NCBI GenBank assembly: GCA_028532985.1
Contig: JANCIK010000011.1
Span: 186,001-250,000, forward strand
Source of the DNA: Stropharia rugosoannulata
Lineage: Eukaryota > Basidiomycota > Agaricomycetes > Agaricales > Strophariaceae
Length of the DNA: 64,000 bases
Direction of reading: 5' to 3'
Positions 1 through 51,022 of this stretch are shown here, one piece after another (position 1 is the stretch's first letter; the number at the start of each line of letters is the position of its first letter). The translations under genes were made by a program, and so were the position numbers. A model generated the notes under the pieces. It saw only the letters and a list, made by a program, of their open reading frames with translations. It made no database searches and was not told the DNA's origin.

Positions 1-229
1 TACTATTACTAAACCAAGGTAAAAAGGACATTTTTCAGAGAAAGTACATAGGGATTTATTAATCATATACATTAGCTTGCTGTAAGCTATAAGGAGGGGA
101 TGACAATTGTATAGTAGGCTCTCCACTCGCTGCCAGGAGGCCAATTTCACACGCTTTTTCAGAGTCCGATGTGTGAGCTCGGTGATGCCGACCGCATCAC
201 TTACATCATCAAATCCCAGCTCCGGCACG

Positions 230-3283: not shown

Positions 3284-4567
3284 ATGTCTTCCCATAAAAA
3301 GCTCTTATCACTTCCGAATATGTCTTCCTCAGCCAACTCCGGGCTTCCCTCCCCCTCGGCCGAATATGGTGTTGTGGCCACTGATTTCAATGACTCTATG
3401 TTCACCGTATTGCTATTTGGTATGTTTTATGATCTATAAATTTCGCAAGACAAGTCTCAATTACCTTCAATTGATTGTGTAGGAATGTATTCCATGATTT
3501 ACGTATATACAATGTATATTTATCGTAAGTTTATATGTGTAACTGCACAGTGCGATTCTTAGGAAACGTCAGTGAGATGCAAGGGTATATCAAAGGGGAA
3601 CATGGCCGTACTCGCAACAATCACAGTGTTGTACTTGATTAACATTGCACTTACAGCGGCTGGATGGATCACGAGTCGAGCTGACTTTCTGGGAACAATT
3701 GACCAGTCCATTGATAATGTCTTTCTCATCATCGTTTCCGGGAATAATTGGCAAGTTCTATTTAACATCGTGGGTAACCTTCTTTCTATGACTCTAGCCG
3801 ATGGACTACTGGTATGGGCTGCATTGATTACTAGATTGCAGGTACTAAGGCTAATTGAAATCAGATCTGGCGCTGTTACCATGTTTGGGGAGGATCAATT
3901 TACTCTATCGTAATACCCATTTTATTTGTTTTGGCGGAGATAGGCAAGTCTCGTTCATTTGTCTCCAGATAGACGCTGATATACAGCGTAGCATTAAACC
4001 TTACAGCAATAGTTATTGCCTGTATCAGTAACCTCAGTCCCCTGCCAAACGTCGCAGTTCTCTACAATAATCTTTCATGTGCAGCAATATTTATGTCATT
4101 TGGCTCTACTACACTTATGACATTGTTGATTGCATATCGCATTTACTCTGTGTCACAAGAAAGAAAAGGGAAATTCCATACACGCCCCTTCGTTTCCATT
4201 GTAGATGCCATCGTACAATCAGCCGCAGCCTATACAGCGGCTTCACTCCTTTTCGCGATTTCGGGGATAGTTCCTGCCACTCAGTCTACAAAAACCACGC
4301 TGTTCAATTTGCAAGGATATGCATACGCTGTGTTTGCGACAACTGCTGTATGCGCACGTATAAGTAAACAGTATTGTTCTGATAATTCTTTCGTTTTAGG
4401 GAGCCGCACCCACAATTATGGTTGCCCGAGTAGCACTTGCTGCTCAATGTTCCGAAGGGTCTCGCATTGGAAATAACATCAGCGACTTGGAGTTTAACAT
4501 GGGACCGTCTTCTGAGGCAGCCCCAAATCCAAGGGAGAGTGGCAATCCAGAAGAAACTTCTGATTAG
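3284..4567 (+). CDS. Multi-pass membrane protein (fungal 7TM-like family)
   Basis: The reading starts at the ATG at 3284 (MSSHKKLLSLPN) and runs through several small exons: about 3284-3419, 3483-3525, 3563-3811, 3865-3948, 3987-4347 and 4400-4567. It gives about seven hydrophobic segments, for example MAVLATITVLYLINIALTAA and SLLFAISGIV. Family signatures include LADGLL/IWRCYHVWG, FVLAEI, LIAYRIYSVS and IVQSAAAYT. The C-terminus is hydrophilic and Ser/Pro/Glu-rich, after GAAPTIMVARVAL. It closely resembles the truncated copy at 576-1454, so the two are a tandem duplicate pair. A TATA-like box lies just upstream. The phase between exons 2 and 3 does not close cleanly by eye, so that boundary may be wrong or the gene damaged. 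A plasma-membrane location is an inference; substrate and role are unknown. Confidence 0.6.
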
Positions 4568-7924: not shown

Positions 7925-8746
7925 TGTTAGGGATTATATAAGAAGCAAAGCCTTCTTAAACACACATTAAGATAGAAGATTCATAGAGTAACCGAGTTCC
8001 AGTGACATTTCTCTTTTTCCAGTAGAACAAGTTCTTAATTATATATTTAAAAACATTTAAGCGCTCATTTATCTATTTCTAAAACAACAAGTTAAGCACA
8101 GGACGGTTATTTATAGAAACACAGCCTGCAAAGTTACATACATTGAAACACGTTTGGGTAATTAGCACAGCCTTGTAGTACCAGTATATAAACGGTTTCA
8201 GATGTATTCTTTACAACTTAATCTCATACCACCATCATCTCCTCCACTTGAGTGAGTCTCTGCCATTGCAGACAACCAGAACACTGAAATTACTTATTCT
8301 AATACGGTAAGGTTCTGCTTGCACTAGCTAGTATTACTTTACAAGTCTACACTAACCCACTAACCTTAATAATTAACTAACAAGCTCTAATAGTCGCGCT
8401 CTACCACCTAGTAAGCGCTCGTAACAAGTAACTACAGTACATAATTAGTTACACTCTTTGTATTCCGTGCCACAAGCTGTAATACATAGTAAATCACGCT
8501 TAAGCGCCCGTTAAGCGCCCAAGCTCGTAGCACGCCGTTCACGCTCCCAACAACACGCACTCGTCGTGCCACACTACGTCCACATCACTCACACGTTTAT
8601 TAAGCGCCCGTTAAGTGCCCGTGCTCGTTACACGCCTCGTACACGTTAAGCGCCCATTCAACATTGTGCCACAATCCACGTACTATTAGTATCTTCATTG
8701 GAAGACACCAACGTTACTTGTTCATTTAAATTCATGTACCATAACA
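7925..8746 (+). repeat. 5' LTR
   Basis: 822 bp, TG...CA ends. It contains a TATATAAAC box near 8186 (probable start of U3-driven transcription) and several copies of TTAAGCGCCC in its 3' third (around 8500-8655). Those copies may be a regulatory or packaging repeat, though this is not known. Confidence 0.95.
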
Positions 8747-16602: not shown

Positions 16603-17424
16603 TGTTAGGGATTATATAAGAAGCAAAGCCTTCTTAAACACACATTAAGATAGAAGATTCATAGAGTAACCGAGTTCCAGTGACATTTCTCTTTTTCCAG
16701 TAGAACAAGTTCTTAATTATATATTTAAAAACATTTAAGCGCTCATTTATCTATTTCTAAAACAACAAGTTAAGCACAGGACGGTTATTTATAGAAACAC
16801 AGCCTGCAAAGTTACATACATTGAAACACGTTTGGGTAATTAGCACAGCCTTGTAGTACCAGTATATAAACGGTTTCAGATGTATTCTTTACAACTTAAT
16901 CTCATACCACCATCATCTCCTCCACTTGAGTGAGTCTCTGCCATTGCAGACAACCAGAACACTGAAATTACTTATTCTAATACGGTAAGGTTCTGCTTGC
17001 ACTAGCTAGTATTACTTTACAAGTCTACACTAACCCACTAACCTTAATAATTAACTAACAAGCTCTAATAGTCGCGCTCTACCACCTAGTAAGCGCTCGT
17101 AACAAGTAACTACAGTACATAATTAGTTACACTCTTTGTATTCCGTGCCACAAGCTGTAATACATAGTAAATCACGCTTAAGCGCCCGTTAAGCGCCCAA
17201 GCTCGTAGCACGCCGTTCACGCTCCCAACAACACGCACTCGTCGTGCCACACTACGTCCACATCACTCACACGTTTATTAAGCGCCCGTTAAGTGCCCGT
17301 GCTCGTTACACGCCTCGTACACGTTAAGCGCCCATTCAACATTGTGCCACAATCCACGTACTATTAGTATCTTCATTGGAAGACACCAACGTTACTTGTT
17401 CATTTAAATTCACGTACCATAACA
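16603..17424 (+). repeat. 3' LTR
   Basis: 822 bp. By eye identical to the 5' LTR except C at 17413 instead of T at 8735. It is followed by the target duplication GACAA. Confidence 0.95.
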
Positions 17425-30000: not shown

Positions 30001-30250
30001 TGGTCAGTGACCCACACTGACCAACACTGACCGCACACTGACCTACACTGACCTGCACTGACCCTACACTGACCTACACGTACCTACACTGACCCCGCAC
30101 TGACCTGTACTGACCTGCACTGACCTACACTGACAACACACTGACCTGCACTGACTTGTACCAACTTCACACTGACCCACACTGACCTCACACTGACCTT
30201 CACTGACCCACACTGACCTCATGCTGGCCTTCACTGACCTCTACCAACCA
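30001..30250 (+). repeat. CACTGACC satellite tract
   Basis: About twenty-five copies of an 8-11 bp motif CACTGACC(TA/TG/CA) in direct orientation, with slight variants. A smaller cluster recurs at 31150-31290. Confidence 0.85.
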
Positions 30251-31149: not shown

Positions 31150-31290
31150 CTGTATTACCTGTACACTGACTTACACACTTACCTTTGCACTGCCACACAC
31201 TTACCTTTGCACCGCCACACACTGACCTACACTGACTAACACTGACCTTGCACTGACCGACACTGACCTTACACTGCTCCACTGCTGCAC
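31150..31290 (+). repeat. CACTGACC/CACTTACC satellite, second cluster
   Basis: Direct repeats of CACTTACC(TT) and CACTGACC near the right end of the transposon. Confidence 0.7.
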
Positions 31291-46404: not shown

Positions 46405-49400
46405 ATGGGTATCATTGGCAGAGTCTTCGCTGTCCGCCTATGGCTCCCGTTTATCCGCCGCGATCGAGATGGTCCACCAAGCCACTCCGTCGCTGCAGGC
46501 ATCTCGTCTATGCACAAGCTCATACTCCCATCTGCGACTGGGGTCAGCGTTGACCACGCCGGTCATCCTTCGACCTTGACACCCCAGAACGGCTCTTCCT
46601 TGGATGAAGCTGTGCATCAGAGCCTCATCCTCCTCTCCCCAATTGCGGCCGCGATTCCCGTAGTTGGCACTGTATTGAACGGGTGCATCACCACCTTACT
46701 GGCCGTGTGGAATGGGATCGATGTGAGTCGGCGCATGCTTTAAGAATGCCCCTCGTTTGTGAACGAGAATATTTGCAGAAAAAGAATCGGAATAAAGAGA
46801 TCGCAGCACGCCTTACAAAAAATCTATATTATTTACAAATCAACATATCAGCAATAGGAGATGACACAGGTTCCGTACGGCATCGTGAAGAACTGGCTCG
46901 GTAGGTGGCGCCATCTGAGATACGCACTCATAAATAACTGATTTTGGGATACACTTCAGCAATCTGGACGTCCTTTCAGATCGGCTGAAGCAACTAACTG
47001 TCAACTCATTTCTATATAATGCGAAAACTTCAGAAGTCATTCTTGATCTCACTACAGAAATGAATAGCCATCTTTTGCGTTATATGGTCAGTTGGCTACC
47101 TTACAGATTCAGTTTACACTTCATTGACGAACATCATTCCGAGGCCCTCTCATGTATGAGAATGGAACATAATGGAGACAGGTTACTGGAAAATTTTTCA
47201 GACAATCACGGACAGTTGCCTGGTTCTGTGAAACTGGGAATAGTCTTCGTAATGGATGCAACCGGTCGTGAATTTAAGGTATTGATTGACCAATGCCAAT
47301 CGCGTAAGGTCAGTTGCATTCATTGGACCTCAATCGTTCATCGGAGATAGTCTGATGTGTATTCCCTAGCAATTCATGAAGGTACTTGAATGCTACTTTG
47401 GAGACAACGAAAAGGACAGAGTCTTGCGTCACTTTATGGATCGAGGCGCATATGATCTGCATATCGAAGCTGAATCAGGAATCACCCGACTGGATGGATG
47501 GTCTGGAGTCCGCATGGGAACGAGGATTGTCATGAGCGCTGTCTTCGAATCTTACAGCGGTTGCAGAAAATACAAGTGTCCACGATGCAAGGCATGGAAT
47601 ATAGAAAAGGAAGAGAACAATAGTTGGATTGATTGGTAAATATATGCATATATTCTCTGATGATGTTACCTAATAACAAGTGACAGTGGTAACTGTCCAG
47701 GGCGCTTTCAGACTACTGACGCTGACAGACAGGGGGCAACGTCTGGACAAAATGTGAAAAAGTCTTTGACTCCATCAGGTGATGGTTATCGTCCACGACT
47801 GGACCTTATCCTCAACTTCCATGTGAAGCAACAGGCATGTAGAATGATTCTGAGAACTAGATTAAATGGCTTATATCTTTGGGACTGTTTAACTTTTCAG
47901 GCTGTATGTGCCACGTTTCCTGATCTCTTGATTGCATCACTCACCTTTGCATGCCCATGTCCCACTCTCAGATTGTATGTGATCCCATCTCTGCGTCTGT
48001 GCATCCCATCACTGACATTGCCATGGCCATCACTCTCAGGCTGTATGTAATCCCACCTCTGCATTTGTTAAAGCCATGACTGACCTTTCTGTGGCCATGT
48101 CCCACTCTCAGCAGGTAAGTGATCCCATCTCTGAGTTTGTTACAGACATGACTGACCTATCCATGACCATGTGCCACTTGCAGATGGTATGTGATCCCAT
48201 CTCTGCATCTGTTAAAGCTATGACTGACCTTTCCCTGGCCATGTCCTGCTCTCAGAATGTATGTAATCCCATCTCTGCATTTGTTAAAGCCATGATTGAC
48301 ATTTCCATGGCCATCACTCTCAGGCTGTATGTAATCCCATCTCTGCATCTGTTAAAGTTATGACTGACGTTTCTGTGGCCATGTCCCACTCCCAGGAAGT
48401 ATGTGATCCCATCTCTGCATTTGTGCATTCCATCACTGACCTTCCTGTGGCCATGTCCTGCTCTCAGCTTGTATGTGATCCCATCTCTGCATTTGTTAAA
48501 GCTATGACTGACCTTTCCCTGGCCATGTCCCACTCCCAGAGAGTATGTGATCTGATCTCTGCATCTGTTACATGTATCACTGACCTTTATGTGGCTATGT
48601 CCTGGTCTCAGCGGGTATGTGATCCTATCTCTGCATTTGTTAAAGCCATGACTGACCTTTCCCTGGCCATGTCCTGCTCCTAGCTTGTACGTGATCCCAT
48701 CTCTGCATCTGTGCATCCCATCACTGACTTTTACGTGGCTATGTCCTGCTCTCAGAATGTATGTGATCCCATCTCTGCATCTGTGCATCCCATCACTGAC
48801 CTTTCCATGTCCATGTCCCACTCTCAGGCTGTATGTGATCCCATCTCTGCATCTGTTAAAGCTATGACTGATGTTTCCGTGGCCATGTCCCACTCCTAGG
48901 AAGTACATGATCCCATCTCTGCATTTGTGCATCCCATCACTGACCTTTCCGTGGCCATGTCCTGCTCTCAGTGGGTATGTGATCCTTTCTCTGCATTTGT
49001 TAAAGCGATGACTGACCTTTCTATGACCATGTCCTGCTATCAGAATGTATGTGATCCTATCTCTGCATTTGTCAGAGTCATGACTGACCTTTCTGTGGCC
49101 ATGTCCTGCTCTCAGAATGTATGTAATCCCATCTCTGCATTTGTTAAAGCCATGATTGACGTTTTTATGGCCATGTCCCACTCCCAGGAAGTATGTGATC
49201 CCATCTCTGCATTTGTTAAAGCTATGACTGACCTTTCCATGGCCATGTCCTGCTCTCAGGCTGTATGTGATCCCATCTCTGCATTTGTTAAAGCTATGAC
49301 TGACCTTTCTGTGGCCATGTCCTGCTCTCAGAATGTATGTGATCCCATCTCTGCATCTGTTAAAGCTATGACTGACGTTTCTATGGCCATGTCCCACTCC

Positions 49401-50784
49401 CAGGAAGTATGTGATCCTATCTCTGCATTTGTCAGAGTCATGACTGACCTTTCCATGACCATGTCCTGCTCTCAGGCTGTATGTGATCCCATCTCTGCAT
49501 TTGTTAAAGCTATGACTGACCTTTCCCTGGCCATGTCCCACTCCCAGAAAGTATGTGATCCAATCTCTGCATCTTTTACACATATCACTGACCTTTATGT
49601 GGCTATGTCCTGGTCTCAGCGGGTATGTGATCCTATCTCTGCATTTGTTAAAGCCATGACTGACCTTTTGGTGGCCATGTCCTGCTCTCAGAATGTATGT
49701 GATCCTATCTCTGCATCTGTTAAACCTATCAGTGACATTTCTGTGGCCATGTCTTGCTCTCAGCTTGTATGTGATCCCATCTCTGCATTTGTTAAAGCCA
49801 TGACTGACCTTTCCCTGGCTATGTCCTGCTCTTAGCTTGTACGTGATCCCATCTCTGCATCTCTGCATCCCATCACTGACCTTTCCCTGGCCATGTCCTG
49901 CTCTCAGAATGTATGTAATCCCATCTCTGCATTTGTTAAAGCCATGATTGACATTTCCATGGCCATCACTCTCAGGCTGTATGTAATCCCATCTCTGCAT
50001 CTGTTAAAGCTATGACTGACGTTTCTGTGGCCATGTCCCACTCCCAGGAAGTATGTGATCCCATCTCTGCATCTGTACATCCTAACACTGACCTTTCCAT
50101 TGCCATGTCCTGCTCTCAGCTTGTACATGATCCCATCTCTGCATTTGTTAAAGCCATGACTGACCTATCTGTGGCTATGTCCCACTCACAGAATGTATGT
50201 GATCCCATCTCTGCATCTGTTACACCTATCACTTACCTTTCTGTGGCTGTGTCCCGCTCCCAGGAAGTATGTGATCCCATCTCTGCATCTGTACATCCTA
50301 TCACTGACCTTTCCATTGCCATGTCCTGCTCTCAGCTTGTATGTGATCCCATCTCTGCATTTGTTAAAGCCATGACTGACCTATCTGTGGCCATGTCCTG
50401 CTCTTAGCTTGTACATGATCCCATCTCTGCCTTTGTTAAAGCCATGACTGACCTATCTGTGGCCATGTCCCACTTGCAGATTGTATGTGATCCCATCTCT
50501 GCATTTGTTAAAGTCATGACTGACCTTTCTGTGGCCATGTCCCACTTTCAGCAGGTACGTGATCCTATCTCTGCATTTGTTACAGACATGACTGACCTAT
50601 CCATGACCATGTGTCACTTGCAGTTTGTACGTGATCCCATCTCTGCATCTGTTAAAGCTATGACTGACCTCTCCCTGGCCATGTCCTGCTCTCAGAATGT
50701 ATGTAATCCCATCTCTGCCTTTGTGATTCCCACCACTGACCATCCTATACTCAGGCTGACATTGGCTGGATGCTTTTAACATAA
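46405..50784 (+). CDS. Ubiquitin-like-domain protein with zinc ribbon; intron-like array in its 3' part
   Basis: Exons 46405-46722, 46779-46900, 46960-47308, 47370-47635 and 47687-47834 join in phase to 401 aa. The N-terminal third has a hydrophobic helix (LILLSPIAAAIPVVGTVLNG). The middle holds a ubiquitin-like fold of the fungal ULD type (VKLGIVFVMDATGREFKVLI to MGTRIVMSAVF). After it comes a zinc ribbon, C-x2-C-x17-C-x2-C (CPRC...CGNC). In related mushroom proteins this pair ends the protein. Here a GC-AG intron (47835-47900) leads into 40 intron-like tandem units. If the whole array is removed, the frame ends ADIGWMLLT-stop at 50784. If splicing stops after the GC-AG intron, translation ends at 48050. 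The role is unknown; ULD domains are linked to immunity-like and signalling proteins in fungi (inference). Confidence 0.65.
47901..50754 (+). repeat. 40-unit tandem array of intron-like 72-bp repeats
   Basis: Units start at 47904, 47975, 48043, 48115, 48187, 48259, 48327 and then mostly every 72 bp (68 where 4 bp are lost) to 50699. Each unit has a donor hexamer (33 GTATGT, 3 GTACGT, 1 GTAAGT, 3 GTACAT), a CTGAC or close variant about 30 nt before the end, a pyrimidine-rich stretch, and an end in CAG or TAG. Exactly three bases lie between each YAG and the next GTA. These triplets are the most variable positions (AAT, GAA, GCT, CTT, CGG, CAG, TTT, TGG, ATG, AAA, AGA, ATT). None is a stop codon in the frame of the gene. 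Because 72 is a multiple of three, long frames are also open on the minus strand (582 codons, 48252-50000). Confidence 0.95.
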
Positions 50785-51022
50785 CTGATTTTTCAAAACA
50801 CATATTGGTTCCCACACACTATGGCCAACAAATCAATTCTGGATAGATGTACATGAATGACATTCTTTTGTTTCTTTCACATTTGTTCATGCAATAGACA
50901 TGGAATAAGTATCTGATATATCTCTCAAGTAATTCATGATCTTTCTGTATGACCTTCTCAAGATAACACCAAGATTGTTCTCAATGTTTTCACTCCAAAT
51001 CTGTAGCACTCTTATTGAAACA
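50785..51022. other. Intergenic, 3' flank of the array gene
   Basis: AT-rich, no gene or repeat seen. Confidence 0.5.

What the first reader, a model, noticed from the sequence alone, without database searches (positions are those of the whole stretch)
47901..50754. Forty tandem intron-like units separated by three-base micro-exons
Each of 40 units of about 72 bp begins with a usable 5' splice site (37 of 40 are GTATGT, GTACGT or GTAAGT), has a CTGAC-type branch site about 30 nt before its end, and ends in CAG or TAG. Differences between units swap one accepted splice signal for another, while the three bases between YAG and GTA vary freely. Two units read CAG-CAG-GTAAGT/GTACGT, which look like zero-length-exon (recursive) splice sites. 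The array sits in the 3' part of a real spliced gene, and an acceptor is followed by a short final exon (ADIGWMLLT). Possible meanings: a tandemly amplified intron, stepwise recursive removal of a 2.8-kb intron, or 3-nt micro-exons adding variable residues. Known relatives of the idea are introner elements and ratchet splice sites; I know of no tandem array like this.
Basis: partly seen in the sequence, partly recalled or inferred. Interest (0 to 1): 0.92.

Follow-up and report, generated by a model that had tools for sequence, protein, structure and literature searches.

The report
Forty one-codon exons in a row
In what is likely a mushroom-type fungus, a stretch at the end of a gene holds forty three-base pieces set between forty intron-like stretches with conserved splicing signals; these stretches are predicted to be cut out so that each piece would add one amino acid to a variable protein tail, and a second gene in the same genome has the same three-base layout although its intron-like stretches share no clear similarity, so the layout is likely kept by selection.

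Summary
47901-50754 is forty gap-free units of NNN, a GTAYGT-type donor, a branch motif about 28 nt from the end, and YAG. Five more arrays of this unit were found, each at the same place in another copy of the gene, which encodes a ubiquitin-like (ULD_2) domain and a zinc ribbon. Splice-signal columns vary in 1 of 9 cases, other intron columns in 55 of 60 (p 1.3e-6). The NNN columns are the three most variable of 72 (p 1.5e-5), with no stop codon in 104.

Strongest support: a second ULD_2 gene (L036). Its intron-like bodies resemble neither each other nor the window's, yet it holds 14 AG-NNN-GTRNGT sites in 1,840 nt against 0.17 expected.

Best reading: a micro-exon gene whose one-codon exons are spliced by intron definition into a hypervariable C-terminal tail. 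No RNA was available, so splicing is inferred. Weak points: the intron before the array has a GC donor (AC in one copy), and one array ends in decayed units.

The parts
46405..46722 (+). Exon 1 of the host gene (start ATG, 318 nt)
   Evidence: Six-copy alignment, donor GTGAGT in all six
46779..46900 (+). Exon 2
   Evidence: Gene model from the six-copy alignment
46960..47086 (+). Exon 3
   Evidence: Gene model from the six-copy alignment
47144..47308 (+). Exon 4, start of the ULD_2 domain
   Evidence: Pfam PF22893 E 9.9e-8 over residues 222-303 of the spliced protein
47370..47635 (+). Exon 5, rest of ULD_2 and first half of a zinc ribbon (CPRC, read by eye)
47687..47834 (+). Exon 6, second half of the zinc ribbon (CGNC, by eye) and ..LDLILNFHVKQQ; ends in phase 0 (1146 nt = 382 codons)
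   Evidence: Moniliophthora relatives that reach this place end or change sequence after ..HIMQ (P0003, P0004, P0005, P0006, P0009)
47835..47900 (+). Intron before the array, GC-AG (GCATGT...TTTAACTTTTCAG), 66 nt; the weakest link
   Evidence: GCATGT in 5 of 6 copies, ACATGT in L010; an in-frame stop inside it in the five other copies, none in the window (L010 stop read by eye)
47901..50754 (+). Array of 40 units, each a 3-nt micro-exon plus an intron of 56-69 nt. Micro-exon starts: 47901 47972 48040 48112 48184 48256 48324 48396 48468 48540 48612 48684 48756 48828 48900 48972 49044 49116 49188 49260 49332 49404 49476 49548 49620 49692 49764 49836 49908 49976 50048 50120 50192 50264 50336 50408 50480 50552 50624 50696
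   Evidence: predicted residues AIAQMNAELRRLNAEWNNEANEAKRNLLNAELNELLIQFN
50755..50784 (+). Final exon ADIGWMLLT and stop; AQVGWM and stop in L009, L010, L012

Best explanation
The array is likely a micro-exon gene tail in which forty short introns are predicted to be removed one by one by intron definition, joining forty single codons in frame into a C-terminal tail, hypervariable between units, of a ubiquitin-like-domain and zinc-ribbon protein. Shown: the anatomy; phase 0 at the exon before the array; constraint on donor, branch T and A, and acceptor; hypervariability of the codons; absence of stop codons among them; and the same 3-nt layout in a second gene whose intron bodies show no similarity. 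Inferred: that the sites are used, that most codons are included, and that the tail is under diversifying selection. Because every micro-exon is 3 nt, joining any donor to any later acceptor would keep the reading frame, so isoforms with fewer residues are expected too. Exchange between units would homogenise the introns and change unit number (10 to 40 in the copies counted), as is described for WD, TPR and ANK repeats of fungal NOD-like receptors. Here the conserved scaffold would be thrown away by the spliceosome and only the variable codons kept.
For: Forty contiguous units. Six gene copies found, each with an array at the same place. With the window's exon model projected on them, 5 of 6 have an open frame of 356-383 codons over six exons; L011, cut by a telomere, has one stop. 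Core splice columns variable in 1 of 9, other intron columns in 55 of 60, p 1.3e-6; permutation p 1.7e-4 and 2.0e-4 on 64 distinct 72-nt units. The branch motif keeps T and A invariant while the base between them varies. No extra AG between branch and acceptor in 103 of 104. Micro-exon columns are the three most variable of 72, p 1.5e-5, and high in the diverged C9 array too, p 0.002; among unit pairs differing at 1-4 other places they differ at 0.62 per site, intron triplets at 0.33 at most and 0.08 on average. 22 different triplets and 0 stops in 104 micro-exons, 34 of them one base from a stop. Intron lengths range from 56 to 78 while the exon stays 3 nt. Second gene L036: 14 sites with spacer 3, against 0-2 for each other spacer 0-15 and 0 on the other strand; expected 0.17, p 2e-22. 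Its intron bodies score against each other about as shuffled ones do, and the four sister ULD_2 loci show no such chain. Moniliophthora roreri P0003 can be read as a 69-nt unit followed by 3 nt and another donor, after the matching exon end. Single-nucleotide exons are reported in Fusarium, with read support, and in Arabidopsis, so 3-nt exons are feasible.
Against: No RNA evidence. The intron before the array has a GC donor, changed to AC in L010, and if it is not spliced 5 of 6 copies stop within it. Six of 104 donors are GTACAT. The 3' end of the C9 array holds one unit with a destroyed donor (CTATAC) and one with GTACAA. In the 27 unit pairs where the two neighbouring introns together differ at 4 places or fewer, the micro-exon differs at 0 to 0.056 per site: codons are copied with the introns, so hypervariability need not be positive selection. 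Absence of stops is weak by itself (about 2.7 of 104 expected from column frequencies, my hand estimate). Consensus differences between the two array types are not significantly concentrated outside the core (0 of 9 against 17 of 60, p 0.10). The core columns are textbook positions, but I listed them after seeing the alignment. Column tests treat columns as exchangeable and units share descent. The predicted window tail is not unusually amphipathic (p 0.2).
Confidence: 0.68

Rival explanations
1. The whole array is usually removed in one or a few long splicing events, and the unit sites serve as stepping stones or decoys. Few or no single-codon exons would reach the mRNA.
For: All units carry donors and acceptors, so skipping is easy, and any skip keeps frame. 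L036 has a 198-nt interval in its chain with an AG|GTGAGT (zero-length) junction inside.
Against: Interior sites would then drift, but they are constrained. The exact 3-nt spacer would not matter, yet it is the spacer kept in L036. This gene's own upstream introns are short, 51-63 nt.
Confidence: 0.14
2. The coding part ends before the array, at the stop reached by reading through the GC donor, and the units are introns of a 3' untranslated region or of an unused extension.
For: Weak GC donor, AC in L010, and an in-frame stop in that 66-nt stretch in 5 of 6 copies. In the four closer copies its divergence from the window (7-9 of 65) is like that of codons and introns.
Against: The exon end matches the place where Moniliophthora relatives end or change sequence. 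Last exons ADIGWM/AQVGWM are kept in frame. In L013 the stretch is more diverged (19 of 65) than codon positions or introns. L036 shows multiple-of-3 exons without stops up to a 24-codon last exon.
Confidence: 0.12
3. A neutral minisatellite that happened to arise from an intron and is too young to have lost its signals.
For: High similarity, copy-number differences and block duplications. Consensus differences between array types are not significantly outside the core (p 0.10).
Against: Signal columns are constrained while 55 of 60 others vary. L036 keeps the 3-nt spacing with no detectable repeat left.
Confidence: 0.04
4. A protein-coding tandem repeat of 24 residues, on either strand (a 583-residue open frame exists on the minus strand).
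For: 35 of 40 window units are 72 nt, and frames of the unit are open on both strands.
Against: Five window units break the frame, four window units carry an in-frame TAG at the acceptor, and 13 of 15 C9 introns are not multiples of 3. Synonymous and non-synonymous variant counts lie near the unconstrained expectation in all six frames (for example 25 and 56 against 20.0 and 61.6; no significance test made). A search with translated units gave one hit, E 0.067, among the candidates scored.
Confidence: 0.02

Closest known systems
Micro-exon genes (MEGs) of schistosomes and tapeworms (PMC4350168 and PMC7653826, passages read; DeMarco 2010 not held)
   Same: Long runs of symmetrical micro-exons divisible by three, allowing proteins that differ by single residues.
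   Different: Here the organism is a fungus, every window micro-exon is exactly one codon, the introns are near-identical tandem copies of about 69 nt, and the host gene is a ULD_2/zinc-ribbon gene. No RNA support yet.
SNHG14 tandem introns carrying SNORD115/SNORD116 (PMC11608373, abstract and passages)
   Same: 29 and 48 consecutive introns of one gene, each with its kind of snoRNA.
   Different: Here no Rfam family matches, the introns are about 69 nt, and the exons are single codons.
Hypervariable WD/TPR/ANK repeat arrays of fungal NOD-like receptors (PMC4986451, passages)
   Same: High internal repeat conservation, length variation and a few hypervariable codon positions.
   Different: Their conserved part is translated; here it is predicted to be spliced out.
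Introners and introner-like elements (PMC9860276, PMC4457414, passages)
   Same: Near-identical introns in many copies.
   Different: Not found dispersed in unrelated genes, no stable fold in six units, confined to one position of one gene family in the searches made.
Stwintrons and recursive splice sites (PMC8469720, passages; PMC6224609 seen only in a listing)
   Same: Consecutive splicing of adjoining introns; a zero-length junction in L036 and NAGNAG cases are possible.
   Different: The spacer is 3 nt, not nested or zero, in all 40 window units.
Single ultra-small exons: 1 nt in Fusarium CYP621A (PMC12940212, abstract) and in Arabidopsis APC11 (PMC4674806, passages); Trichoderma Xlr2 microexon (PMC11121469, abstract)
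   Same: Exons smaller than 3 nt can be spliced, and fungi have functional microexons.
   Different: Those are single exons; here there are forty in a row.

Membership tests
Micro-exon gene (criteria in PMC7653826) | At least seven exons, micro-exons (under 70 nt, divisible by three) at least half, run of at least four | tested here: inconclusive
   Predicted model meets it (47 exons, 40 consecutive 3-nt exons) but exons are predicted, not seen in RNA
Micro-exon gene | Alternative splicing yields protein variants | not testable with these tools
   No transcripts available
Spliceosomal (U2) intron | GT..branch A..AG with constrained signals | tested here: met
Spliceosomal (U2) intron | Removed from RNA | not testable with these tools
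   No RNA data
Introner / introner-like element | Near-identical copies in many unrelated genes | tested here: not met
   86 pattern hits, all in the six arrays of one family; 63 double-unit hits likewise; the search scores only its best candidates
Introner-like element of fungi | Stable secondary structure or inverted repeats | tested here: not met
   Six units fold no better than shuffles, z from -0.26 to 0.86
Recursive / zero-length exon splicing | Acceptor directly followed by donor (AG|GT) | tested here: not met
   Spacer is 3 nt in all 40 window units; NAGNAG possibility in 2 window units
Intron-hosted snoRNA array | snoRNA in each intron | tested here: not met
   No Rfam match up to E 1 in 47800-50900
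Coding tandem repeat (NLR-type) | Repeat body under codon constraint and in frame | tested here: not met

The most novel reading that the evidence does not exclude
A hypervariable recognition tail written one codon per exon. Conserved introns act as the exchange scaffold that shuffles, multiplies and protects the array and are then discarded by splicing, so that forty independently skippable codons yield a combinatorial set of in-frame tails. The arrangement arose or persisted in at least two ULD_2 genes of one genome and, by protein traces, in Moniliophthora.
Probability: 0.33. Interest if true: 0.95.

Novelty: new variant of a known kind. Interest (0 to 1): 0.88.

Why it matters
If the sites are used, this would be an extreme case of intron-defined splicing: forty consecutive exons of three bases in one gene, with intron sequence homogenised and exon codons hypervariable. 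It would make several questions directly testable: how short an exon chain the spliceosome can handle, whether intron arrays can serve as recombination scaffolds for protein variation, and whether such tails are systematically missed, since very small exons are often misannotated or missed (PMC8831610, abstract start). In L036 the spacing is present without intron similarity, so such a chain either outlives its own repeat or was built intron by intron.

Tried and rejected
Coding-repeat reading on both strands: rejected by frame-breaking units, in-frame TAG and no clear codon constraint. snoRNA or other RNA family: nothing in Rfam up to E 1. Stable intron fold: none in six introns, one of which (L013:3283-3350) was cut one base early. 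Spliced retrocopy of the tail in the genome: one match with 3 mismatches, on the reverse strand, against two in the control. Amphipathic helix in predicted tails: not in the window (p 0.2); L009 (0.054) and L012 (0.038) are borderline, the other three are not. Translated units as query in the protein database: one hit, E 0.067. Other double-unit patterns in the genome, 3-nt spacer with GTRAGT donors and 6-nt spacer with GTAYGT donors: 0 matches each (in one search the reversed control gave 1 and 1). Four sister ULD_2 loci: no chain. No match is not proof of rarity, since the genome search scores only its best candidates.

Rows dropped before counts: the 15th, telomere-cut unit of L011; the last three units of L013 (one with intact donor GTACGT, one with donor CTATAC, one with GTACAA and a second GTACGT); for the column test, W-type units not 72 nt long (16 of 89) and duplicates (73 to 64). 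In one search gaps were ignored, among them four at the acceptor A that come from the alignment of the short last units. In L036 the 6-nt and 15-nt exons, the omission of a site at 3718 and the exon end before the chain were chosen by eye.

Literature: the listings (titles and abstract starts) of searches show no tandem array of one-codon exons in the held open-access library; most subscription papers are not in it.
Full report
What is there. The window lies in G000, a 47.97-Mb genome in 20 contigs. At 47901-50754 forty units tile without gaps. Each is NNN + GTATGT/GTACGT/GTAAGT (37 of 40; 3 are GTACAT), a body, a branch motif and YAG. Lengths are 72 (35), 68 (3), 71 (1) and 59 (1).

The host gene. 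A six-exon model, 46405-47834, gives 382 codons ending in phase 0. It matches PF22893 ULD_2 (E 9.9e-8); a CxxC..CxxC zinc ribbon, read by eye, follows. Projected on six copies the exon frames are kept, with third codon positions the most diverged (for example 0.145 against 0.100 and 0.090, window against L009). After the array a 30-nt last exon reads ADIGWMLLT; L009, L010 and L012 read AQVGWM. The predicted product is 431 residues.

Six arrays. The unit was found in six places only, each in a copy of this gene: 40 units in the window, 11 in L009, 14 in L010, 14 complete in L011, 10 in L012, and 15 complete strict ones in L013 on contig C9, whose consensus differs from the others at 17 of 60 non-core columns. 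In L011 the contig ends in TTTAGGG repeats that begin inside the array, and that copy has one stop in the body of the gene.

Are the signals constrained? Over both array types, 1 of 9 core splice columns varies (donor +5) against 55 of 60 other intron columns, p 1.3e-6. The nine are textbook positions, but I listed them after seeing the alignment. Within 64 distinct 72-nt units, random column sets are rarely as invariant (p 1.7e-4 for six core columns, 2.0e-4 for nine). In the branch motif T and A do not change while the base between them does. Among 104 complete units the donors are GTATGT 72, GTACGT 25, GTACAT 6, GTAAGT 1; the acceptors CAG 88, TAG 15, AAG 1; an extra AG between branch and acceptor occurs once. 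Units were cut by a pattern that demands donor and AG, but because they tile without gaps no failing unit was lost, except at the 3' end of L013, where three more units exist, one with a destroyed donor.

The micro-exons. The three NNN columns are the three most variable of 72 (p 1.5e-5); in C9 p is 0.002. There are 22 triplets and no stop in 104. Against over-reading: where both flanking introns are nearly identical (27 pairs with at most 4 differences) the NNN is nearly identical too, so codons travel with their introns and the excess variety can be old variation kept rather than fast mutation. Variant counts in intron bodies lie near the unconstrained expectation in all six frames; no significance test was made.

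The decisive relative. Of five other ULD_2 loci found by profile, one (L036, C1:3922000-3931500) has, after its zinc ribbon, 14 AG-NNN-GTRNGT sites in 1,840 nt. Each other spacer from 0 to 15 gives 0-2, the opposite strand 0, and the background of the same genome predicts 0.17 (p 2e-22). L036 was picked out of five loci, two strands and ten spacers, which such a p survives. TRF finds no period near 72; intron bodies score against each other about as shuffled ones do (mean 12.8 against 11.9, maximum 22 against 27) and do not match the window units. Read partly by eye, the chain is 19 exons: 17 of 3 nt, one of 6 and one of 15, all multiples of three and free of stops, before a last exon of 24 codons. 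A YTNAY motif lies 8-45 nt before the end in 15 of 17 introns of the 3-nt-only chain, which is weak evidence since the motif is common. Its exon before the chain, with a GTGAAG donor chosen by eye, ends ..RNIRVVL in phase 0, at the place of ..LNFHVKQQ here and ..QNLHIMQ in Moniliophthora (these ends were aligned by eye). Four sister genes (48-53% identical) show no chain. So the one-codon layout does not depend on the repeat.

Another genus. Moniliophthora roreri P0003 ends with two similar peptides, VSVPAIC..DSQ-A-VSVPAIC... GTRNGT is possible at three offsets of that tail (81, 109, 153) and YCYAG at eleven ends, among them 75 and 150.

Mechanism. I infer serial intron-definition splicing. 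Introns of 56-69 nt are close to this gene's own 51-63 nt. A one-nucleotide exon is reported in Fusarium with read support (PMC12940212, abstract) and in Arabidopsis, where intron definition combined with recursive splicing was proposed (PMC4674806, passages). The open link is the intron before the array: GCATGT in 5 of 6 copies, ACATGT in L010, with a stop inside it in the five copies other than the window's (the L010 stop read by eye). If it is kept, those copies would make a protein without the tail.

Known kinds. The closest is the micro-exon gene of flatworms (PMC4350168, PMC7653826, passages). The predicted model meets the published numerical criteria, but exons are not shown in RNA. Concerted evolution with hypervariable codons recalls fungal NLR repeats (PMC4986451, passages). 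Introner, snoRNA-array, recursive and coding-repeat readings fail tests listed in the membership table. I therefore call it a new variant of a known kind.

Noticed in passing
L036 2781-4620 (G000:C1:3924780-3926619): Second ULD_2 gene with a chain of 3-nt exons and dissimilar introns; includes an AG|GT zero-length junction, a 6-nt and a 15-nt exon (the last two by eye).
   Followed up: yes
L011 4214-4391 (end of contig C12): Telomeric TTTAGGG repeats begin inside the intron array, as if a chromosome end had been healed within the gene; this copy also has one stop codon.
   Followed up: partly
Unit columns 10-25 (GATCCCATCTCTGCAT): A stretch just after the donor varies little in both array types beyond any splice signal known to me; possible splicing element or exchange hotspot.
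   Followed up: no
window 30008-30240 and 31173-31277: Two short repeats built on ACACTGACC, about 1 kb apart, on either side of a stretch that looks partly exonic by eye.
   Followed up: partly
window 8609-8655 and 17287-17333: The same tandem repeat row appears twice 8.7 kb apart, suggesting a duplicated segment.
   Followed up: no
C11 100, 234 and 346 kb; C12 end; C9 about 134 kb from its end; C16 (67-kb contig): The six array genes lie within about 350 kb of contig ends (C16 is a short contig), suggesting a subtelomeric family.
   Followed up: partly
L013 4132-4390: 3' end of the C9 array is decaying: donors CTATAC and GTACAA, an extra GTACGT.
   Followed up: partly
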